From: a virus
Reading direction: 5' to 3' (one strand)
Length of the DNA: 22,756 nucleotides
Virus record (IMG/VR): IMGVR_UViG_3300036780_000408
Span: 1 to 22,756 of that record
Below the pieces are notes generated by a model. It searched no databases. It saw nothing but the letters and a program-made list of their open reading frames with translations, and was not told where the DNA came from. The translations under genes and the position numbers were made by a program. This document shows, piece by piece, positions 3,375-16,698 of this stretch; the first letter of the stretch is position 1; each line of letters opens with the position of its first letter.

Positions 3375-3974
3375 CTAGTTGCTGATCGCGACGATGTAGA
3401 AATTGTCGCCGATCGGCGCGATGAACCCGACGCCGTATTCGAGCGGCGTATCGGCGATCTTAGCCTTCCAATCGGCCGACCACTCGGCCTGCGGACGTGC
3501 GATCTCACCGCTCTCGTCATAGACGAGAAGATGCCAATTGCTGATGCCGGCCCAGCCATCCTCCGAGAGCACAAAGACCTTGGTGCGCGCGCCGCGATCC
3601 GCCGGCATCGCGGCGATCTCCGCGAGATAGCGGCCGCGATTCATCCGATAGTCGAGATATTCGCCGGCGACCATGGTGCCGTCATGAAAGACGCGGTAGT
3701 TCGCGAGCGAGATCGCCAGCGACAGCGGCAGCATGGCGAATGCCGCGGCCCGCGCGTACCGTTTCACGATGGCGGACCAGATAGCAAGGCCCAGCCCGAT
3801 CACCGCCGCGACATACCATGCGGCGACGATGAGAAGATCACCCCACGTATCGTCGGGCTCGGAGGCCCAGTACAGCACCGTCGCCAGCGGGAAGGCGAGC
3901 GCGCATATGATGCCCACGAGGCACGAGAGCGGCCACGACACGCGGCGCCGATCGACCAGACCTTCGCCCGTCAT
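3375..3974 (-). CDS. Membrane protein D (199 aa), distant fourth member of the tandem array
   Basis: Three hydrophobic segments lie at about residues 15-36, 47-70 and 76-92, followed by a soluble domain of about 105 residues. The C-domain carries DGWAGISNWHLLVYDESGEIARP, which aligns with WDGFLSQWWGVVYDAADEFAKRP of its neighbours, so I treat it as a distant homolog. It lacks all four C-terminal cysteines of the other three. ATG at 3974 overlaps the stop of the preceding gene by 4 bases (ATGA), showing translational coupling; a TTG two codons upstream is the alternative. With KR residues between segments 2 and 3, the C-domain should be periplasmic. Proposed role, by context only: immunity or accessory protein for the toxin-like gene at 6096-6395. 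Confidence 0.8.
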   Translation of the reverse strand: MTGEGLVDRRRVSWPLSCLVGIICALAFPLATVLYWASEPDDTWGDLLIVAAWYVAAVIGLGLAIWSAIVKRYARAAAFAMLPLSLAISLANYRVFHDGTMVAGEYLDYRMNRGRYLAEIAAMPADRGARTKVFVLSEDGWAGISNWHLLVYDESGEIARPQAEWSADWKAKIADTPLEYGVGFIAPIGDNFYIVAISN

Positions 3975-4618
3975 TGGCAATAGCCGAAGGTACCGGCGCC
4001 GACATAGTAGTGATTGCCGACACTAAGCGAGGTGCTGGAGCAGGAAAGAGACTTGCCGATCGGGTGGCGCTTCGATTCAGCCGATCGTTCGCGCGGCGGC
4101 TTCGAGAACTCGTCACTGGCGTCGTAGACGACGCCCTCCCAATTCTCGAGAAAGCTATCCCAGACAAAGATGATGATCATCGGATCGTCGCACTGCCAAT
4201 CGGCGACAGTAATGTCTTGTGATTTGATGTCCTCGGGATCGCATTTGCCGGCCTTGGCGCGCGTTACAACCGCGTCGAAAGCCGCTTTGTTCGTGGCAAA
4301 ATGAAGCACCTCGCTGACATGCTGACCCAGAATCGCGACCGTCGCCGCGAAGGCGAGAACTCCCATCCATGCGAGACCCATGAGGTATCGACGCCTGAAG
4401 ATGGTCTTCAATGCCATGACCAATGCCGCGATCGATATGACGAGCGCGAATAAGGTCACCGGCCCCAAGAACAGCAGCGCCAGCCAGAAGACATGAGCAG
4501 CGATGACGAGGAGGCCGGCCAAGATCAAGCCGATTGCACACAGCGCCACAAAGCTGCGCACGGCACGGTGCTGCTCGGCGGATATGGGCACTTTCTTGGA
4601 GACGGGAGTGTTGCTCAC
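3971..4618 (-). CDS. Membrane protein C (215 aa), tandem array paralog
   Basis: Three membrane segments (about residues 21-42, 45-70 and 79-98) are followed by a C-terminal domain of about 115 residues. That domain contains the shared motifs AKAGKC, WxCDDPxxIxFxWDxF, GVVYDAxDEFxKxP and LSCSxxSxxVGxHYY. Four C-domain cysteines (126, 143, 193, 214) match those in proteins A and B. The positive RRRY after segment 2 predicts a periplasmic C-domain, where two disulfides could form. GTG at 4618 is chosen because it lies 1 base past the upstream stop and keeps the natural N-terminus; the longer open frame upstream is Arg/Ser-rich shadow. Function unknown; probably part of an immunity-like or envelope-protective set. 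Confidence 0.85.
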   Translation of the reverse strand: MSNTPVSKKVPISAEQHRAVRSFVALCAIGLILAGLLVIAAHVFWLALLFLGPVTLFALVISIAALVMALKTIFRRRYLMGLAWMGVLAFAATVAILGQHVSEVLHFATNKAAFDAVVTRAKAGKCDPEDIKSQDITVADWQCDDPMIIIFVWDSFLENWEGVVYDASDEFSKPPRERSAESKRHPIGKSLSCSSTSLSVGNHYYVGAGTFGYCQ

Positions 4619-4619
4619 G

Positions 4620-5267
4620 TCACTGGCAACCCTCTGGTCCGCTGGCAAAGCTCCCGCTGCCGATATAATAGTGGTTGCCCACGCCGAACGACGCCCAGGA
4701 GCAGGAGAGAAGGTCGCCAATTTCACGGCTCTTCCACGCCGCCGCTCGCGTGCGCGGACGCTTCGCGAACTCGTCGGCGGCGTCGTAGACGACGCCCCAC
4801 CACTGCGAAAGGAATCCGTCCCAGGGGAAAACGATGGTGATGGGATCATCGCAGTCCCAGCTATCGACAGCGACGCTTCGTGCCTTGAAGTCCTCGGCTG
4901 TGCATTTCCCGGCCTTGGCACTCGCCACGACAGCATCGTAAGCCGCCTTGTGCCAAACGAAGTAAATCGCGTCACCGGCGCGCGAACCGAGCATGGCGAT
5001 CGCGACCGCGAGAACGGGAAATCCCGACCATGCGAGGCCCTGGAGGTATCGGCGCTTGATCATTCTTCTGACGGCGACAACCACGGCCGCGATGGGCACC
5101 ACCAGTGCCCAAGTCGCCGCGAAGAAAAAGAGTGGCGACGTTACGACCAAGAAAGCCCACGCCATTTCCCACGGAGCGATCGCGGCACAGACAAGGCCGG
5201 TGATGATCAGCCATCCGACGCACAGCGCCAAAAAAACACGCGATGGGTCGGGCCCTTCAGGAGGCAT
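4620..5267 (-). CDS. Membrane protein B (215 aa), tandem array paralog
   Basis: Membrane segments lie at about residues 11-31, 36-66 (possibly one long or two shorter) and 77-94, with RRMIKRRY between the last two, so the C-domain is predicted to be periplasmic. The C-domain is nearly the same as that of protein A in the middle (VAVDSWDCDDPITIVFPWDG onward) and keeps the four cysteines at 122, 139, 189 and 214. ATG at 5267 is preferred over GTG at 5285 because AAGGA sits 8 bases upstream of it. An 86-bp block is identical at the DNA level to protein A although the flanks differ. The next gene, C, starts 1 base after this stop. No named family recognised. Confidence 0.87.
   Translation of the reverse strand: MPPEGPDPSRVFLALCVGWLIITGLVCAAIAPWEMAWAFLVVTSPLFFFAATWALVVPIAAVVVAVRRMIKRRYLQGLAWSGFPVLAVAIAMLGSRAGDAIYFVWHKAAYDAVVASAKAGKCTAEDFKARSVAVDSWDCDDPITIVFPWDGFLSQWWGVVYDAADEFAKRPRTRAAAWKSREIGDLLSCSWASFGVGNHYYIGSGSFASGPEGCQ
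4789..4874. repeat. 86-bp perfect direct repeat, copy in gene B (other copy 5557-5642)
   Basis: The 86 bases here match 5557-5642 without a mismatch, including all synonymous positions, whereas sequence just outside is clearly diverged. The block encodes the SWDCDDP-to-GVV core of paralogs B and A. Perfect identity inside diverged genes points to recent gene conversion or recombination. Confidence 0.93.
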
Positions 5268-5387
5268 GAGCGCAATCCTTGCCACGGCATTGCACCGGTG
5301 CGGCCGGAGACAGCGAGCTTGCTTTCTGGGTCATCACGGTCTCCCTGCCAGATCATGCGTCGAAGTCGCTCATCCGCGTACTCGGCC

Positions 5388-6032
5388 TCAATCGCAGCCG
5401 TTAGGACCTGTGCCGTAGTCGCCATAGGCGATGTAGTAGTGATGGCCCACGCCGAACGACGCCCAGGAGCAGGACAGAAATTCGCCACTACGACGGTGAG
5501 TCCACGTCGCTATCCGCTTTCGCGGCCGCTTCGCGAACTCGTCCGCAGCGTCGTAAACGACGCCCCACCACTGCGAAAGGAATCCGTCCCAGGGGAAAAC
5601 GATGGTGATGGGATCATCGCAGTCCCAGCTATCGACAGCGACACCCCGTGCTTTGAGGTCCTGCCCCGAGCACTTCCCCGCCTTGGCGCTCGCGACGACC
5701 GCATCGTAAGTCGATTTGTACCAGGCGAACCGCAGCGCATCGCCAACCCGCCAGCCGGCAATCTCCATCAGCGCAGCGAGAACGGGAACGCAGAGCCAAG
5801 CGAGACCGATGAGATGGCGGTGGCTGAACAATCTCCTCGCGGCAACAATCATCGCCACCAGCGACACCGTCAGCCAGGCAAGCCAGAGCCAAACCGCTGT
5901 GAAAGTGAATCCCCTGAAAGGCACCCAATCCAGACCCGACGCGGCGAACGCCGCGGCAAGACCGGCGGCTACCGAGCAGACGGCACTCACCGCGACAAAA
6001 ATAGGAGAGGCGCCGGGCCTACCAGGGGACAT
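5388..6032 (-). CDS. Membrane protein A (214 aa), first of the tandem array
   Basis: Hydrophobic segments lie at about residues 11-33, 42-66 and 73-92, with ARRLFSHRH between the second and third, giving an N-in, C-out prediction. The C-terminal domain has cysteines at 121, 138, 188 and 213 and the shared motifs AKAGKC, SWDCDDPITIVFPWDG, GVVYDAADEFAKRP and LSCSWASFGVG. ATG at 6032 has no clear Shine-Dalgarno sequence. It begins 63 bases after the toxin-44-like gene ends, making it the first gene behind that candidate toxin. Multiple paralogous immunity genes behind one toxin are common in polymorphic toxin loci, which motivates the immunity idea; no known immunity family is recognised. Confidence 0.86.
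   Translation of the reverse strand: MSPGRPGASPIFVAVSAVCSVAAGLAAAFAASGLDWVPFRGFTFTAVWLWLAWLTVSLVAMIVAARRLFSHRHLIGLAWLCVPVLAALMEIAGWRVGDALRFAWYKSTYDAVVASAKAGKCSGQDLKARGVAVDSWDCDDPITIVFPWDGFLSQWWGVVYDAADEFAKRPRKRIATWTHRRSGEFLSCSWASFGVGHHYYIAYGDYGTGPNGCD
5557..5642. repeat. 86-bp perfect direct repeat, copy in gene A (other copy 4789-4874)
   Basis: This is the partner of the block at 4789-4874, 768 bases away and in the same orientation, identical over its whole length. A shorter near-identical block also links the two 3' ends (GCCCACGCCGAACGACGCCC, around 5443 and 4676). Confidence 0.93.
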
Positions 6033-6095
6033 GCACGCAATAGCAGCTGAATCATTGCGTCATTTCTACCGTCAGGATTGCGGCGGTTTAGTGAT

Positions 6096-6395
6096 TCACG
6101 GAGCGATCTTGCCCGTCATGTAGTCGTCGTACCCCTTCTTGATCAGGGGGACCGTGACCGGGTTGGCTCCCAAAAGGCGCAGCGACCTTTCGCCGTGATT
6201 GGCAATCGCCGCTCCGACCAAGGTCTCTGGCCAGGAAAGCCCCGCTGCCGCGGCGACAACGCCATAATTGTAATTGCCGATGTCGACATAGTCTCGATTG
6301 TAATCGTCGGTACTGCCGCCATAGATCACTTGGTAATCCACCGGACCACCGCGAGGAAATAGGGCGCGCGTGCAGGCGGCGGAATACGGGCACAC
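6096..6395 (-). CDS. Toxin-44-like domain protein (99 aa), candidate polymorphic toxin
   Basis: Residues 38-45 read DIGNYNYG, followed by VVAAAAGLSWPETLVGAA and, near the end, PLIKKGYDDYMTG. From memory, this order (a GN-x-NYG motif, an Ala-rich helix, then a GYxYY-like end) resembles the 'bacterial toxin 44' domain of polymorphic toxins, a predicted RNase family. The match is by eye and needs a profile search. GTG at 6395 is the first start codon after the tail gene's stop; no Shine-Dalgarno sequence is visible, so translation may depend on coupling to or readthrough from the tail gene, which is in the same frame. The protein has no signal peptide. Four membrane-protein genes follow. An alternative is that it is the cut-off C-terminal domain of a former tail fusion. 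Confidence 0.6.
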   Translation of the reverse strand: MCPYSAACTRALFPRGGPVDYQVIYGGSTDDYNRDYVDIGNYNYGVVAAAAGLSWPETLVGAAIANHGERSLRLLGANPVTVPLIKKGYDDYMTGKIAP

Positions 6396-9771: not shown

Positions 9772-10728
9772 CTACCGCGGCAGTGGCTGCGGCAGGCGCA
9801 GCGCGAGCTTGGTGAGCTCATGGGCGCGCTGCTCGGGGCTAAGCCCCGCGAGGCGCGTGACGAAATCGGCGACCCGCTCGCCACTGGCGCCGCCGCCATC
9901 CTGCTCCTTGCCGATGACAATCGCCTTGGCGATGGCGCGGGCCGGCAGCGGCTCGGCTTCGAGCCTCTCCAGGCGCTTCGCCAGCGCCTCCATGCGGCGC
10001 TGCAACGGCGCCATCTCTGCGGCGAGCCGCGCGAGTTTCTCCGCAGCACCGGCAGCGCCCGCCGTCATCGCTCCATCCGCGGCGGCCGGACAGGATGCGC
10101 CGAGATCAACCGACGTATCATGCAGCTTTTGCACCCGCGCGAGGTCGACGCGGCTGTGGCGCGCGCCGACCTTGCCGTAGCTTGAGGCGGCAGCGCTCGA
10201 GGGCAATTGGCCCGGACATGAGGCGCCCAAATCGACCGAGGTGTCGTGCAGCCCCTGCACGCGCGCGAGATCGACCCGGCTATGGCGGGCGCCCACCTTG
10301 CCGAGACCGCGCGCCTTATAGAGCTCGATCACCGCTTCGGGATTGGCGGGGCGGTCGACGAGGCTGATCTCGAGGAGCTCGACGCCGGTGATGATATTCT
10401 TCTGCGCCTTGTCGCGCTCGACGACATGGCCGCCGATCGAGAAGCCCTTGTAGACGCCTTCCGTCACTTTGCGCCAGGCCTCGTCATCGATGATGCGCGC
10501 GGCGAGGTACAGCCCCTTGTCGTCGATCTCGGCTTCCTTGGCGACACCGACCGCCGAGGGCCGATGCATCTCGCGAATGTTGGCGAATCGCATATAGTCG
10601 GGCAGCGCCGCCTCGATCGCTTCCTTGCGCACGACCTCGCCCTGGCTGTCGAGTGCCTCGGTGCTGGCATAGCCGCAGACCAGCCGCTGCTCGCGATCGA
10701 TCTTGGTGATCTCGGCGAAGAGCCTCAT
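9772..10728 (-). CDS. Prohead serine protease, HK97/XkdF-like, with duplicated motif (318 aa)
   Basis: Residues 1-135 carry the prohead protease core: GYASTEALDSQGEVV, a likely catalytic His55 in REMHRPSAVG, likely nucleophile Ser97 in YKGFSIGG and the ISLVDRPANPEA strand. It matures the capsid by cutting the scaffold part. Residues 143-172 and 185-214 are a near-perfect repeat of a 30-residue unit (GKVGARHSRVDLARVQ, LHDTSVDLGASCP). Such units occur at the C-terminal side of phage proteases, usually once, from memory. A coiled, Ala/Leu-rich region (223-262) follows and may serve as scaffold. ATG at 10728 has AGGAAG just upstream. The gene follows a hairpin at 10757-10778 and precedes the capsid gene. 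Confidence 0.9.
   Translation of the reverse strand: MRLFAEITKIDREQRLVCGYASTEALDSQGEVVRKEAIEAALPDYMRFANIREMHRPSAVGVAKEAEIDDKGLYLAARIIDDEAWRKVTEGVYKGFSIGGHVVERDKAQKNIITGVELLEISLVDRPANPEAVIELYKARGLGKVGARHSRVDLARVQGLHDTSVDLGASCPGQLPSSAAASSYGKVGARHSRVDLARVQKLHDTSVDLGASCPAAADGAMTAGAAGAAEKLARLAAEMAPLQRRMEALAKRLERLEAEPLPARAIAKAIVIGKEQDGGGASGERVADFVTRLAGLSPEQRAHELTKLALRLPQPLPR
10088..10302. repeat. Intragenic tandem duplication in the protease gene (two 89-bp units)
   Basis: Units at 10088-10176 and 10214-10302 align without gaps at a 126-bp offset (42 codons). I count 17 differences in 89 bases, yet the encoded 30-residue units differ at only one residue (Lys versus Gly). Confidence 0.9.
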
Positions 10729-10803: not shown

Positions 10804-11073
10804 CTAGCTGTTGGTCTTTTCCGCGAATATTGTGCCGGCCATAGTTGCACAGCTCTCGCTGATCGCACCGGAATGTCCCGCGACCAGCCGCACTTCGGGT
10901 TTCGTTCGCGCGCAGAACGAGCAAGTGAGCTTGCGCTCCTCCGGCCCGGCCTCCGGTCCCAGCGTATCCCGCAGCACGGCGCCCGCCACTTCATGGAGAT
11001 TCATAAGCGTGCCCGTCTGATAGGCGTCGTCCTTGAGCGCGCGAAATAAAATCGCGCGCAGTGCGAGCTCCAT
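10804..11073 (-). CDS. ClpX-type C4 zinc-finger-like small protein (89 aa), degenerate
   Basis: The C-terminal half (LTCSFCARTKPEVRLVAG, SGAISESC) matches the ClpX N-terminal zinc-finger pattern CSFCGKSxxEVRxLIAG...ICDEC, known from family memory. One of four zinc ligands is replaced: the expected CxxC second pair reads SxxC (ISESC). ClpX zinc fingers bind substrates and adaptors, so a phage copy could interfere with the host ClpXP system, but this is inference. The N-terminal part (ALKDDAYQTGTLMNLHEVAGAVLRD quoted by position) is helical. ATG at 11073 lacks a Shine-Dalgarno sequence and lies inside a frameshifted ORF, so the gene may be either an overlapping gene or the C-terminal piece of a broken fusion. 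Confidence 0.6.
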   Translation of the reverse strand: MELALRAILFRALKDDAYQTGTLMNLHEVAGAVLRDTLGPEAGPEERKLTCSFCARTKPEVRLVAGHSGAISESCATMAGTIFAEKTNS

Positions 11074-11267
11074 AGGCGAGCGCGATGGTGCCCGTCAGCT
11101 CATCGCGCGGCCGCGGGCGATAGATGCGCCGGCCGCCCTTCTCCGCCACTTCCACCAGGATCGCCGGCCCCAGCGCGATGCTGTCACGATCGCAAGCAAG
11201 CCGAAGCCCACCCATCGCCCAGCGCGAACGTGGTCATACGGGCATTGCTCGAGATGCGGAGGTTCAT
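10991..11267 (-). pseudogene. Frameshifted paralog of the N-terminal domain of the 12098-13129 gene
   Basis: From ATG 11267 the frame reads MNLRISSNARMTTFALGD, then stops after 27 codons. A second frame continues from 11215 as GGLRLACDRDSIALGPAILVEV, ending at 10991. The intact paralog at 12098-13129 reads MNLRVSGDARITTFRLGE and then GLACDRDGIALGPATLVDAVE without interruption. Between the shared anchors CTGGGCGA and TTGCTTGCGATCG the paralog is 2 bases longer, which explains the frameshift. A further shift near 11040 would connect to the zinc-finger ORF, so the ancestor may have been one fusion gene. Sequencing error cannot be excluded. Confidence 0.7.
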
Positions 11268-11360
11268 TTCCGTCTTTCCAGGGACGAGGGTGAACAAAGA
11301 TAGAGAAAGCGGTATCCCGCGGCAGCGCCGTGTCCTCAGCTATTCCTCGCGATTCGCCGA

Positions 11361-12097: not shown

Positions 12098-13129
12098 CTA
12101 GTTCCTTTGTAATAGTCTCTTGACGTATTCGGCGCCCGGCCGCGAGATCGACGATGACCGGGGGAAGCGCGGATCGATCATCACCAGCGTGTTGCTGCGC
12201 TTGTCATAGAACAAGGCGCGTCCGCTGGCATCCCGCTGCGGCTGCGCCGTCCGCATGACATTCTCTGCCAGCGCCGCCAAATCGCCTGGGCCGCCGACGT
12301 CGGGGAACTGCCTTGGGTCAACCGCATGCAGCCGATAGGTATTCGCCGCGGCGACGCCAGCAGCGTTCCTGATCGCGTCATCCAGCGCATGCCTGGCCTC
12401 GGCGACATGATCGCCGGTCGGCGGCTTCTCGGGGTCCCACATATCGTTGAACAGCTTGTTGTTCGGGTCGATGGCGTAAAGCTGCTTGGTATAGATATCG
12501 AAGAGCTCTCGGCGAACTACCGCCGTCGGATCGAGGGCGTCTTCGTCGGGGTCATGGATGTCGGGCTCACTGTACTCGGGGGACTGGCGCGTAGGGCATG
12601 CCAGGGGCGAGGGTCTGGGCAAGCTGCTCGCCCGCTGCCTCGCTGCCGCCGTTCGCGTCGCTACGGGTGCCGTCGTCGTAGGCGGCGACCTGCATGCCGC
12701 CGCTGCCGCCTCGCTCGTCCAGCGCCCGTGCTCGTCGCGCGGTTGGTCGGGGCTGTATTTGGCAAGGCTCTCCGCGCGGGCGAGTTTGCCGAACGCCGCG
12801 GCGGTCAGTGGCGGCAGCCTCAGGAGCACCGTGGCGATGCCGGCGAGCGGCAGGTTGCCATCTTCCAGCGCTCGCACCGCGACATCGAGCTTTGACAGGC
12901 ACCGGGCAAGATCGCGCGGTTTTTGCCTTCCATACGCCAGATCGAGAATGCGCGCGATCTCCGCATCCTGCCGCCGGCGATAGAGGCGCTGACCGATCGC
13001 CTCGACCGCGTCCACCAAGGTCGCCGGGCCGAGCGCGATGCCGTCGCGATCGCAAGCAAGGCCTGGCCCGCCGCGCTCGCCCAGCCGAAACGTGGTTATG
13101 CGGGCGTCGCCCGAGACGCGGAGGTTCAT
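12098..13129 (-). CDS. Cargo protein with QPRDEHGRWTS motif and possible toxin-like C-terminus (343 aa)
   Basis: Residues 1-110 form an N-terminal domain with LACDRDGIALGPA, shared with the broken gene at 10991-11267. Residues about 126-138 carry KYSPDQPRDEHGRWTSE, the motif also found in the portal. A Ser/Pro/Thr-rich linker of about 45 residues follows, then a C-terminal domain (about 185-343). The domain ends with ALFYDKRSNTLVMIDPRFP and SRPGAEYVKRLL, similar in style to the 'GTxxIxDPRxPxxGTxFRPxxGxxYF' ending of BECR-type toxin domains, low confidence. ATG at 13129 is preferred; ATG at 13135 is an alternative. The linker probably contains two compensating frameshifts (see findings). Motif plus variable tail suggests a phage-linked effector. 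Confidence 0.7.
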   Translation of the reverse strand: MNLRVSGDARITTFRLGERGGPGLACDRDGIALGPATLVDAVEAIGQRLYRRRQDAEIARILDLAYGRQKPRDLARCLSKLDVAVRALEDGNLPLAGIATVLLRLPPLTAAAFGKLARAESLAKYSPDQPRDEHGRWTSEAAAAACRSPPTTTAPVATRTAAARQRASSLPRPSPLACPTRQSPEYSEPDIHDPDEDALDPTAVVRRELFDIYTKQLYAIDPNNKLFNDMWDPEKPPTGDHVAEARHALDDAIRNAAGVAAANTYRLHAVDPRQFPDVGGPGDLAALAENVMRTAQPQRDASGRALFYDKRSNTLVMIDPRFPRSSSISRPGAEYVKRLLQRN

Positions 13130-13215
13130 TTCCATCCATCCAAGGGCGAGTGCGGGCGGGGATCGAGCGGGCGGCACTCCCACCAGCGCTGCCGAGGCTG
13201 CGGCTCAACCGGCGC

Positions 13216-13680
13216 TCATTCCTCGCGCCAGAATGTGAGCTGCAGCGTCGCGGCGATGTTGAGATAGGGGATAACGCGCGGGTTGGTGAGCCAATCCGGC
13301 CAATCCGCATCGGCATGGGGCGGCGGCTCGCTGAGCGCGGCCTCTTGCGCCCAGACCCCGCCACGCCGCGTCGGGCGGCTCAAGGGGATCTCGAGGTAAC
13401 GCTGTGTGCCGGCGAAGAGGTAGCGATCGCCGCTGTCTTTGGGGTGCAGAAGAACTTTCACATAGAGCCGGCCATTGGCGATGGCGGCGGTGATCGTGAT
13501 GCGCTGGCGTTTCTCGTACCAGAACAGGGCCATGTCGCCCGAGCAAAGCGGGCGCGCCACGTCCACGACGCAATGCAGCATCACACCGGGATCGCGCGGC
13601 GCCGGATCGAGTTGCACGGCGCCTACCGCCCAAGTCTCCGCCGCGGCCGGCGCCGACATCGCGTATGGGAGACCGAGCAA
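13216..13680 (-). CDS. Exported protein, paralog of 14084-14566, with disturbed start (154 aa)
   Basis: The mature part (AETWAVGAVQLDPAPRDP onward) aligns with the paralog at 14084-14566: AETW, LDP/VDP, DPxVxxxC, LCxxxMxLxWY, GxRYL, LSEPPP and a final N...ATLxL strand are shared. Two conserved Cys (VMLHC and PLCSG) may form a disulfide. TTG at 13680 is the first start codon but leaves a very short signal peptide. In-frame codons upstream (CTG AAA CTG GGC, from 13707) continue the alignment with the paralog's signal peptide MAKLGAAL, with ATG replaced. The start therefore seems to be lost, non-standard, or shifted by one base. It stands between the 57-aa gene and the motif-bearing cargo gene, and may be a periplasmic immunity-type protein. 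Confidence 0.7.
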   Translation of the reverse strand: MLGLPYAMSAPAAAETWAVGAVQLDPAPRDPGVMLHCVVDVARPLCSGDMALFWYEKRQRITITAAIANGRLYVKVLLHPKDSGDRYLFAGTQRYLEIPLSRPTRRGGVWAQEAALSEPPPHADADWPDWLTNPRVIPYLNIAATLQLTFWREE

Positions 13681-13779
13681 AATCGCCAGCGCCGCGCCCA
13701 GTTTCAGAGCGCGTGAAAGTCCGGCGCGACGAAGAGACGGGCGATCATCGCCCGATCGATGTAACCGCCGATCATAGAG

Positions 13780-13825: not shown

Positions 13826-13999
13826 TCACGACGGATTTGGCGCGCGATCCACTGCGATAGTCGCATTTCCGCCCAGCGCCGCGCGCTCAATCTCCCATCG
13901 GCACGCCGCAAGACTTGCCGCCCGCCTTTGTTGCTCCGTCGCGCTCGCGATCTGCTCGCCCAGTTTCGGTACGATATCTGCCAGAATGTTTGTCGACAT
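13826..13999 (-). CDS. 57-aa small protein with strong Shine-Dalgarno
   Basis: ATG at 13999 has GAGGAAG 5-7 bases upstream, one of the best ribosome binding sites in the window. The product (MSTNILADIVPKLGEQIASA, then ATEQQRRAASLAACRWEIERAALGG by position) is a helical, Gln/Arg/Ala-rich protein with one Cys and no membrane segment. It looks like a genuine small protein. It lies between the two exported paralogs. The 3' end carries a 22-bp sequence that recurs at 11871-11892. An overlapping +1 frame also yields an Arg-rich peptide, so a late frameshift cannot be excluded. No function is known. Confidence 0.65.
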   Translation of the reverse strand: MSTNILADIVPKLGEQIASATEQQRRAASLAACRWEIERAALGGNATIAVDRAPNPS

Positions 14000-14083: not shown

Positions 14084-14566
14084 TCAGCGTTCTGGACGGA
14101 CGTCGATCCGCAATGTAGCGGCGGGCACAAGATTGCCGTTCTCGGGCCAATGATATGGCCAGCCCTCGCCGGCACTTGGCGGCGGTTCGCTCAAGCTCAC
14201 ATCGAGCGAGTAGGTGCTGCTGCGCAGTGTAGGATCACCCAACCGGATCAGCGCGTAAGGCAGGGCGGAGACATAGAGGTAGCGCTCGCCGGTCTCGTGG
14301 TCTTTCAATCGAAATTTCAGAAAGAGGTTACCGGGCCTAACGAGGGCGATGAGCACGACCGTCCAGGGCTCACCGTACCAGAGCAATTTCATCTCGGCTT
14401 GGCAAAGAACTCGCACGTTCTCGGAGCAACGGATCGTCACCGCGGGATCGGACGATTTGGGATCGACCTGGTGGATGCGAAGAACCCAAGTCTCCGCCGC
14501 CACTGCCGACGGAACCGCTAACAACGGTGCGAGCAGCAATGTCAGCGCAGCGCCCAGTTTCGCCAT
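14084..14566 (-). CDS. Exported protein with Sec signal peptide, paralog of 13216-13680 (160 aa)
   Basis: ATG at 14566 gives MAKLGAALTLLLAPLLAVPSAVAAETW, a clear signal peptide with AxA cleavage near residue 24, so the mature protein of about 136 residues is periplasmic. An upstream TTG at 14605 extends it by 13 residues and is not needed. Conserved with the paralog: AETW, QVDP, DPxVxxxCxxxxxxLCxxxMxLxWY, GxRYL, LSEPPP and WPxxW...N. Two Cys residues (TIRCSENVRVLC) are close together and likely pair. The gene follows the portal gene and is the first cargo gene in the portal-protease interval. It could be an immunity or envelope factor linked to the portal C-terminal extension; this is inference only. 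Confidence 0.82.
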   Translation of the reverse strand: MAKLGAALTLLLAPLLAVPSAVAAETWVLRIHQVDPKSSDPAVTIRCSENVRVLCQAEMKLLWYGEPWTVVLIALVRPGNLFLKFRLKDHETGERYLYVSALPYALIRLGDPTLRSSTYSLDVSLSEPPPSAGEGWPYHWPENGNLVPAATLRIDVRPER

Positions 14567-14637
14567 CTTCGTAAGCACGGCTAGATCACCAGTCGGGTTG
14601 AGCAATACATGATTTGTATAACTGCCAATCGTGGAAC

Positions 14638-14748: not shown

Positions 14749-16698
14749 CTATCTCCGCGGCCGGGGGGCTTTTGGCAGCGGTGACGGCGGAAATTGTGTC
14801 AATTCGCCATGTGGAAGGTCGATCTGCGGCGCCGGCACCTGCGCCCCATGGATCTCAGGATCCTCATTTTCATGAGGTGTTGGACCGAGGGGATGCACTC
14901 TTCCCTCCTCGGGAATGCTCTCATCCGGAATATTGGTGCCGGGGATGTTCGGCCGCTCTGGCGGTGGGAGGGGCTCCCGCTCGACGTGGCGGTCATCGCT
15001 GCTCGCGACGAGGTCGCCAAGACGATCGCCGCTTGTCACTCTTGTGCCGACCGCAGGTGCTGTCGCCGGATCGATGCCGCCGTATACGAGAGTGGTGCCG
15101 TCCGATCCGAGAACGTGAACGGTTGCGCCCGCGCCACGACCGACAGAAATCTCGTCGCCACTGTGCACGACCACGCCATCAGCTTGCGCATGCACGCCAG
15201 GCCGGGCATTTCCACCAACACTTGTCCACCGCCCGTGCTCGTCACGCGGTTGGTCGGCGCTGAATTTGCTGACCGCGTGTTTGTCCCCAGACGCGACCAG
15301 CGCAGCGTTGCCGTTGGCCGCATTGCCCCCCAGCGGCACCGGTCCGGAGCCGGTGAAGACCATGGGTGTGTCGCCATGCTCGACGGGGTCGAGGCCGATG
15401 TCGTGGCGCGCCTCCTTGATGGTCTTGATGCCGGTCGTGACATAGGTCCGGGCGATGTTGGCGAGCGTCTCGGGATCAACCTCGCGATCATCGCACCAGG
15501 CGAATTCGAGGTCGGGCGCGGCGAACTCGGTCACCAGGATGTAGTCGATGAGCTGCTTCACCCAGTTCTGCACCGGCGCCAGACCCTCCGCGACCGCGGC
15601 GTCATGCGCGGTCTCGGCTGTGGCTCGGTTCATCATCCCGGCGAAAGGCTGCGGCGAGATCGAGAAGGCGAAGCAGATGACCCGCGCCAGCCACTCGTCG
15701 AAGACGTTCTTGAGCTCGTCATCCTTGGTCGCGATGAAGGTCTTGGCGACCCCGCCCGGCACGAACTTGGCGTGGCGACGCTGCGCCAGATTGCCTTCGA
15801 GCAACGCGTCCCAATATTGCTGGAATTCCTTGATCTGCTGCGGCGACCAGCTTTCGGGCGTGCCGATGAGCGCTTCCGGCACGTTGCCTTCGGTATAGTA
15901 GCTCAGCTGAAAAAGCTGGCGGCGCAGCGCGATGTTGACCGTCATCAGCACTTGCTCGACCGGCGAATAGCCATAGAGCTTGTGCGAGCGCGCATTGCGC
16001 GGGCGGTAGATCAGATCGCGCGTCGTGAGATCGACGGCAGGAAGCCCGTGCAGCACTTGCTGGTATGCGGGCTCGGGCGGCAGCGGCGAGCGGCCATCGG
16101 CGGTAATGAGGCGCTTCACCGTCGTGCCGTCGATCGGCTCCAGCGCGTAGAGTTGGCCGCCGCGCGTGCGCCTGATGAATAGCGCCGGCGCATCGACGAC
16201 GAAGAGATCCTCGAGCAATTGGCGCAGCCAGGTCGACCAGAAATTGATCCGGTCGGGCATGCGGAAGAATTCTTCGATCGCGCCGATGCGAGGATCGTCG
16301 AGCCGGTCGGAAGCGGGCTTCGCATTGGCGAGAGCGCGCGGGCGGATGTTCCAGGTGAGCCGCTCCATCTGGTCTTTGCGCGTCTCGATGACCAGGCGCA
16401 AGAGATCATAGCCATCGGCGATGGAGCGGAGCTGCGCGAAGGATACCGCCTCGTTGCCGCGCGGCGTGACGGTGAGGTTGTAGCCGACGGGATAGTCGAA
16501 CTGCCGCCCCGCCACTTCCGGCGGCGCTTGCGGCGCCAGCGGCTGGAACGGGCCGAACCATGCCTCGGGCCCGGCGCCGGTGATCATGTATTTGACGCCC
16601 TGCAGCACGCGCTGAATGAAGGTAGGCTCGATGGCCGTGCGCGTGGCCCCGGCGCGTTGCGCTGCGGCGATGGATTTGCGGTCAACCGGCTCGGCCAT
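14749..16698 (-). CDS. Phage portal protein, HK97-type, with C-terminal extension (649 aa)
   Basis: The start is ATG at 16698 (MAEPVDRKSIAAA); the 115 codons upstream are a shadow of the fibre-adaptor gene. The core, about residues 20-465, has the portal features: QFDYPVGYNLTVTPRG, RSIADGYDLLRLVIETRKDQ, LEPIDGTTVKRL, SHKLYGYSPVEQVLM and FVPGGVAKTF. It forms the dodecameric DNA gate at the capsid vertex. Residues about 470-492 contain KFSADQPRDEHGRWTS, then about 155 extra residues. In these, GTTLVYGGID, VGTRVTSGDRLGDLVASSDDRHVERE recall an M23 peptidase-like beta fold without the catalytic His, and the end is Pro-rich (PPPERPNIPGTNIPDES by position). An added C-terminal module on a portal is unusual; its role is unknown. 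Confidence 0.93.
   Translation of the reverse strand: MAEPVDRKSIAAAQRAGATRTAIEPTFIQRVLQGVKYMITGAGPEAWFGPFQPLAPQAPPEVAGRQFDYPVGYNLTVTPRGNEAVSFAQLRSIADGYDLLRLVIETRKDQMERLTWNIRPRALANAKPASDRLDDPRIGAIEEFFRMPDRINFWSTWLRQLLEDLFVVDAPALFIRRTRGGQLYALEPIDGTTVKRLITADGRSPLPPEPAYQQVLHGLPAVDLTTRDLIYRPRNARSHKLYGYSPVEQVLMTVNIALRRQLFQLSYYTEGNVPEALIGTPESWSPQQIKEFQQYWDALLEGNLAQRRHAKFVPGGVAKTFIATKDDELKNVFDEWLARVICFAFSISPQPFAGMMNRATAETAHDAAVAEGLAPVQNWVKQLIDYILVTEFAAPDLEFAWCDDREVDPETLANIARTYVTTGIKTIKEARHDIGLDPVEHGDTPMVFTGSGPVPLGGNAANGNAALVASGDKHAVSKFSADQPRDEHGRWTSVGGNARPGVHAQADGVVVHSGDEISVGRGAGATVHVLGSDGTTLVYGGIDPATAPAVGTRVTSGDRLGDLVASSDDRHVEREPLPPPERPNIPGTNIPDESIPEEGRVHPLGPTPHENEDPEIHGAQVPAPQIDLPHGELTQFPPSPLPKAPRPRR

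What the first reader, a model, noticed from the sequence alone, without database searches (positions are those of the whole stretch)
14749..15270. Portal protein carries an extra C-terminal module with an M23-like but catalytically empty beta fold
Seen: about 155 residues follow the motif QPRDEHGRWTS, with strands resembling the M23/lipoyl-type end of peptidases (LVYGGIDP, VGTRVTSGDRLGDLV) yet lacking the HxH and related His, then a Pro-rich tail. Inference: a module that might be exposed on or inside the capsid portal.
Basis: partly seen in the sequence, partly recalled or inferred. Interest (0 to 1): 0.62.

Follow-up and report, generated by a model that had tools for sequence, protein, structure and literature searches.

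The report
Portal protein with swappable effector tail
This phage's DNA-gate (portal) protein ends in a slot that, in its nearest relatives, is filled after the same short connector by completely different toxin-like domains, each followed by its own likely protector gene; here the slot holds a small folded piece of a cell-wall peptidase that has lost its catalytic residues.

Summary
The portal gene (14752-16698, minus strand, 649 aa) ends, after the connector QPRDEHGRWTS, in a ~68-residue folded beta module and a Pro-rich, low-confidence tail. The module is a truncated M23/LytM core (Pfam E 3.6e-5, below the gathering score; M23 peptidases fill most top viral structure matches). The matched stretch leaves out both ligand-bearing ends of the domain, and the YxH histidine is Gly. 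The more important result is comparative. Portals 71-77% identical in the core carry unrelated tails after the same or a similar connector: Pesticin-type muramidase, deaminase-like, JAB-like, and a domain also found in a second window protein. More distant portals carry Ntox37, Zeta toxin, or Gln-amidase papain-fold toxin followed by a curated Imm35 immunity gene. Downstream small genes co-segregate with cargo type. Displaced 3' portal fragments lie downstream in 7 of 17 connector+cargo loci against 2 of 95 others. I read this as a polymorphic-toxin cassette slot on the portal itself, related to MuF toxins but without a MuF domain. The window's occupant is probably an envelope-directed cargo, with two tandem secreted paralogues as candidate immunity proteins. 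Toxicity, packaging and delivery are inferred, not shown.

The parts
14752..16698 (-). Portal protein, 649 aa (stop codon 14749-14751); trunk of the system
   Evidence: Phage_portal 5.8e-17; phrog_2662 5.6e-83
15220..15252 (-). Connector QPRDEHGRWTS, portal residues 483-493
   Evidence: same or similar motif precedes unrelated tails in relatives
15001..15198 (-). M23/LytM-like beta module without catalytic residues, portal residues 501-566
   Evidence: Pfam 3.6e-5; fold; 9gy1 alignment
14752..15000 (-). Pro-rich C-terminal tail of the portal, mostly predicted with low confidence
   Evidence: pLDDT mostly 45-62, last block of residues about 76
14087..14605 (-). Secreted-type protein directly after the portal, candidate immunity protein 1 (TTG start listed; a later ATG at about 14566 is possible)
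   Evidence: N-terminal signal-like stretch by eye; beta-sandwich model; no known family
13219..13725 (-). Second secreted-type paralogue, candidate immunity protein 2 (start uncertain)
   Evidence: 36% identity over 143 aa to the first
13874..13999 (-). Fragment resembling the immunity-type gene that follows the deaminase-like portal tail of L010
   Evidence: 40% over 42 aa, E about 1e-4; weak
12098..13183 (-). Second trunk protein with the same connector (12713-12745) and a C-terminal domain X shared with portal tails of L009 and L167
   Evidence: phmmer 1.8e-23 and 1.3e-22; trunk homologues in L147 and L158
10994..11339 (-). Broken second copy of that trunk
   Evidence: E 4e-12 and 0.0078 in two ORF pieces

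Best explanation
The C-terminus of this portal is a cargo slot of a polymorphic-toxin-like system built on the portal itself. Shown: the conserved portal core is the trunk; a short QPRDxxGRWT-type connector marks the junction; what follows is exchanged between close relatives as a cassette made of effector domain plus immunity-type gene(s), leaving displaced 3' portal fragments behind. Inferred: portal C-termini face the capsid interior in known portals (own knowledge), so the cargo would be carried in up to 12 copies at the portal vertex on a flexible linker, and reach the next cell with the DNA or be released at lysis. In this window the cargo is the small M23/LytM core. Having lost its catalytic residues it should not be an M23 hydrolase; most likely it acts in the cell envelope by binding (peptidoglycan or a host hydrolase), with the two secreted paralogues directly downstream as its immunity proteins. 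Separate confidences: slot reading about 0.8; this particular module being a functional envelope-directed cargo about 0.45.
For: Portals 71-77% identical in the core have unrelated tails after the connector. Tails match curated toxin families: Pesticin 1.9e-38 (L008) and Zeta_toxin 5.6e-14 (L012), Gln_amidase 3.6e-8 (L186) and Ntox37 8.8e-5, below cut-off (L165). Imm35 (1e-8 and 1.9e-9, above cut-off) follows the Gln_amidase portal and its relative L196. Downstream genes group exactly by cargo: L177/L182/L183/L188, L009/L167, L186/L196, L008/L164/L169. Displaced portal fragments in 7 of 17 connector+cargo loci against 2 of 95 others, Fisher p 1.6e-5. In L195 the fragment runs in frame into a second connector and a CHAP-like domain; in L009 it precedes a pesticin-like gene. 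In the window: folded module and tandem secreted paralogues directly downstream, as after the muramidase and lysozyme-type tails of L008, L164 and L169.
Against: No toxicity, packaging or delivery was shown for any of these. The window's module has no close relative in the collections searched, so constraint on it cannot be measured. Its two candidate immunity proteins are orphans. No displaced portal fragment was found in the window itself. The tail classes were assigned by my own pattern and loci are not independent, so the p-value is only a guide. Connector-bearing proteins that look like internal or scaffold-like proteins also exist.
Confidence: 0.6

Rival explanations
1. The slot is real, but in this phage it holds a decayed effector: an M23 peptidase cassette that lost both catalytic ends and is now a neutral tail on a working portal.
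For: Match covers only profile positions 15-75 of 96 and catalytic residues are gone. Cassette decay occurs nearby: broken second trunk at 10994-11339, an immunity-type fragment at 13874-13999, and a split Gln_amidase in L196.
Against: The remaining core is open, in frame and predicted to fold well; both secreted paralogues are kept in tandem.
Confidence: 0.3
2. The module is a delivered regulator of the LytM type that activates or misdirects the target cell's own peptidoglycan amidases.
For: Catalytic residues lost with core fold kept; the LytM domain of DipM and the Csd1-Csd2 complex are among the structure matches. Catalytically inactive LytM factors that regulate other hydrolases are established (PMC8360153, PMC8416486).
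Against: The module is shorter than those regulators, the fold match is generic, no amidase-binding residues were identified, and delivery to the periplasm is not shown.
Confidence: 0.12
3. The module is a structural addition to the portal, for example a capsid-side or DNA-binding domain needed for assembly, with no effector role.
For: It is part of a structural protein, and small beta domains decorate many head proteins (own knowledge).
Against: Nearest portals carry unrelated tails or none (L007, L013) and keep the same head gene order, so no single structural role is conserved; neighbouring tails are toxin families.
Confidence: 0.1

Closest known systems
MuF toxins of temperate phages (Zhang 2012 PMC3482391; Jamet 2017 PMC5576092; Bxa PMC11699363)
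   Same: Head-module protein near the portal as trunk, variable C-terminal toxin domains, small immunity genes directly downstream.
   Different: The trunk here is the portal itself without a MuF domain; a recurrent connector marks the junction; displaced portal 3' fragments lie downstream.
Portal-fused effector domains in polyvalent proteins (PBECR, 2H, InPase; Iyer 2017 PMC5512222)
   Same: Enzymatic domains fused to the portal and proposed to be injected.
   Different: The passages read do not describe cassette exchange, linked immunity genes or the connector; the domains differ.
CDI and Rhs polymorphic toxins with orphan modules (PMC3150448, PMC3967940)
   Same: Conserved trunk, swappable toxin plus immunity, displaced trunk 3' ends in front of orphan modules.
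   Different: Secreted or contact-dependent systems, not virion structural proteins.
M23/LytM peptidases and catalytically inactive LytM factors (for example EnvC, NlpD, ActS, DipM)
   Same: Core beta fold and alignable sequence; loss of catalytic residues as in the regulators.
   Different: Only the inner ~60 positions remain, both ends are missing, and it is fused to a portal.

Membership tests
Phage portal (PF04860) | Portal domain above the curated cut-off | tested here: met
   62.3 bits against 39.1
Polymorphic toxin system | Conserved trunk with unrelated C-terminal domains including toxin families | tested here: met
   met by the portal family, with the window's own tail not a known toxin
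Polymorphic toxin system | Immunity gene directly downstream, specific to the cargo | tested here: inconclusive
   Met in relatives (Imm35; co-segregation); for the window only two orphan secreted paralogues
Polymorphic toxin system | Displaced trunk fragments or orphan cassettes | tested here: inconclusive
   Met in 7 of 17 related loci; in the window no portal fragment, only a weak immunity-type fragment and a broken second trunk
Polymorphic toxin system | Toxic activity neutralised by the immunity protein | not testable with these tools
   Needs experiment
MuF toxin | MuF domain (PF04233 or PF06152) in the protein | tested here: not met
   No MuF hit in the window portal
Peptidase M23 | Match above the curated cut-off | tested here: not met
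   24.3 bits against 28.7
Peptidase M23 | Zinc ligands and catalytic histidines | tested here: not met
   Match leaves out both ends; YxH reads YGG
Peptidase M23 | Core beta fold | tested here: met
   AlphaFold2 model with M23 domains in its alignment; phage M23 peptidases among the best matches; lysostaphin Z 8.3, though unrelated barrel-sandwich folds score alike
Catalytically inactive LytM amidase activator | Activation of a wall amidase | not testable with these tools
   Only loss of catalytic residues and the retained core fold are seen

The most novel reading that the evidence does not exclude
The QPRDxxGRWT-type connector is a general loading or cleavage signal by which several unrelated phage head proteins (portal, MuF, and a third trunk found here) carry interchangeable effector cassettes inside virions; and this window's portal delivers a catalytically empty LytM core that works by regulating or binding the target cell's own wall machinery.
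Probability: 0.2. Interest if true: 0.82.

Novelty: new variant of a known kind. Interest (0 to 1): 0.62.

Why it matters
If right, the portal, which is present in 12 copies and central to packaging and ejection, is itself a polymorphic-toxin trunk, with immunity genes carried between the portal and the head protease. Prophages of this family could then change what their virions carry by swapping one cassette. The connector also gives a simple sequence handle for finding new virion-borne effectors and their immunity proteins, many of which here match no known family.

Tried and rejected
Ordinary portal tail: rejected, because tails of the nearest relatives are unrelated. Frameshifted intact M23: no HxH half in other frames at the 3' end. 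Relatives of the module in phages or plasmids: none; in four related genomes: none. Relatives of the secreted paralogue in viral contigs and 397 genomes: none (without a positive control these show little). Fold of the secreted paralogue: best Z 7.7 to secretins, others to C2 domains, not above background, so no function is read from it. The first M23 alignment (A2) misplaced the C-terminal half and was replaced by A3. GC is not strikingly different in the tail (0.64 against 0.65 for the window; first secreted gene 0.60), so composition neither supports nor excludes recent import. Weak module hits in L097, L076 and L083 are in unrelated phage proteins and were not used. A literature search for the connector found nothing.

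Full report
What is in the sequence. The window is a 22,756-base viral record with small and large terminase, portal, head maturation protease, head-tail adaptor and neck genes in order on the minus strand. The portal is 14752-16698, 649 aa, with the core recognised by Pfam and PHROGs. After QPRDEHGRWTS (residues 483-493) come 156 residues. Residues 501-566 match Peptidase_M23 (E 3.6e-5 for the tail alone, below the gathering score), profile positions 15-75 of 96, and align to PDB 9gy1 with YGH replaced by YGG. AlphaFold2, given four aligned phage M23 domains, predicts an all-beta module at portal residues ~498-565, mostly pLDDT 80-94, and mostly low confidence elsewhere. Because M23 sequences were in the alignment, the model leans towards that fold. 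Most of the best matches among viral models are M23 peptidases. PDB matches mix lysostaphin and LytM domains with unrelated barrel-sandwich folds, so the fold alone would not prove M23 ancestry; sequence and fold together make it likely.

What relatives show. Scanning viral contigs with the portal core gave 65 loci. Portals 71-77% identical in the core end in unrelated tails: JAB-like HTHP (by eye) in L005, Pesticin (1.9e-38) in L008, a domain 'X' in L009, and a deaminase-like domain (by eye) in L010; L007 and L013 have almost no tail and a stand-alone lysozyme-like gene (by eye) next door. A scan of bacterial genomes added 79 loci, many of them Alphaproteobacteria, with Ntox37 (L165), Gln_amidase (L186), lysozyme-like (by eye; L164, L169), X-like (L167, L181) and Cys-rich tails. 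More distant portals are fused to MuF or have short tails.

Immunity and cassette exchange. The gene directly after the portal changes with the cargo. Imm35 follows the two Gln_amidase loci; all-against-all comparison groups the downstream genes by cargo. Muramidase- and lysozyme-type tails are followed by proteins with a signal-like N-terminus; deaminase-like, Ntox37 and X tails by proteins without one (by eye). The Gln_amidase loci are followed by signal-bearing proteins too, so localisation is suggestive only. Displaced portal fragments, most of them 76-99% identical to the resident portal, occur downstream in 7 of 17 connector+cargo loci, 2 of 33 short-tailed, 0 of 49 MuF-fused and 0 of 13 others. 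In L195 such a fragment leads in frame to a second connector and a CHAP-like domain; in L009 it precedes a pesticin-like gene. This is the pattern of orphan modules in CDI and Rhs systems (PMC3150448, PMC3967940; own knowledge of those systems).

The window's own cassettes. After the portal lie two secreted-type paralogues, 36% identical, the first predicted as a beta-sandwich, with a short fragment resembling the L010 immunity-type gene between them. Next comes 12098-13183, a second trunk with the same connector and the X domain of L009 and L167, and a broken copy of that trunk at 10994-11339. Far downstream, a weak Ntox44-like gene at 6099-6395 is followed by tandem membrane-type paralogues; L158 has the same order.

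The connector elsewhere. A DNA pattern for QPRDExGRWT hit 94 viral stretches. Of 87 distinct post-connector regions, some match ADP-ribosyltransferase, Zeta toxin, lysozyme, RNase A toxin or MuF; most match nothing. Some connector-bearing proteins look like internal or scaffold-like proteins, so the motif is not proof of an effector.

Mechanism. Shown: conserved trunk, connector, variable cargo, linked downstream genes, displaced fragments. Inferred: cargo sits inside the capsid at the portal vertex and reaches a target cell; the window's empty M23 core works by binding in the envelope; the secreted paralogues protect the producer. The neighbouring head maturation protease could cut at the connector, but nothing here tests that. 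A decayed effector is the main rival (0.3). A LytM-type regulator of host amidases is attractive but untested (0.12).

Compared with what is known. MuF toxins are the closest system (PMC3482391, PMC5576092, PMC11699363), but the trunk differs. Portal fusions to PBECR, 2H and InPase domains are published (PMC5512222), so portal-borne effectors as such are not new. Not found in the passages read, or in searches of the held library, were the portal as a polymorphic trunk with co-segregating immunity genes, the connector, and displaced 3' ends. The library lacks most subscription journals, so this is not proof of priority.

Noticed in passing
window 3974-6395 (-): A weak Ntox44-like gene (6099-6395, Pfam E 0.0012, below cut-off) is followed by at least three paralogous membrane-type proteins (47-57% identical); L158 has the same pair in the same order, which suggests another toxin with a tandem immunity array.
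   Followed up: partly
window 12098-13183 (-) and 10994-11339 (-): A second trunk family (RDGxALGP...) carries the same connector and variable C-terminal domains in L005, L147 and L158; the window holds one intact and one broken copy.
   Followed up: partly
window 9772-10728 (-): The head maturation protease has a long C-terminal region with a near-identical internal repeat (KVGARHSRVDLARVQxLHDTSVDLGASCP) present twice.
   Followed up: no
window 10807-11073 (-): A small protein with a ClpX-type C4 zinc-finger match (E 3e-5, just below cut-off) lies next to the head protease; similar sequences are in L106, L123, L146 and L225.
   Followed up: no
L195 4712-5617: An orphan cassette: a displaced portal fragment continues in frame into a second connector (GQPRDAGGKFA) and a CHAP-like domain.
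   Followed up: partly
L198, L200, L201, L205, L208 (Methylobacterium): Portal tails of about 650-680 residues contain a MuF-type motif and two connector-like motifs, as if several modules were strung together.
   Followed up: no
L003 5017-6630: A minor-head-type protein with the identical connector QPRDEHGRWT is followed by an ADP-ribosyltransferase domain (Pfam ART 1.8e-5, above cut-off).
   Followed up: partly
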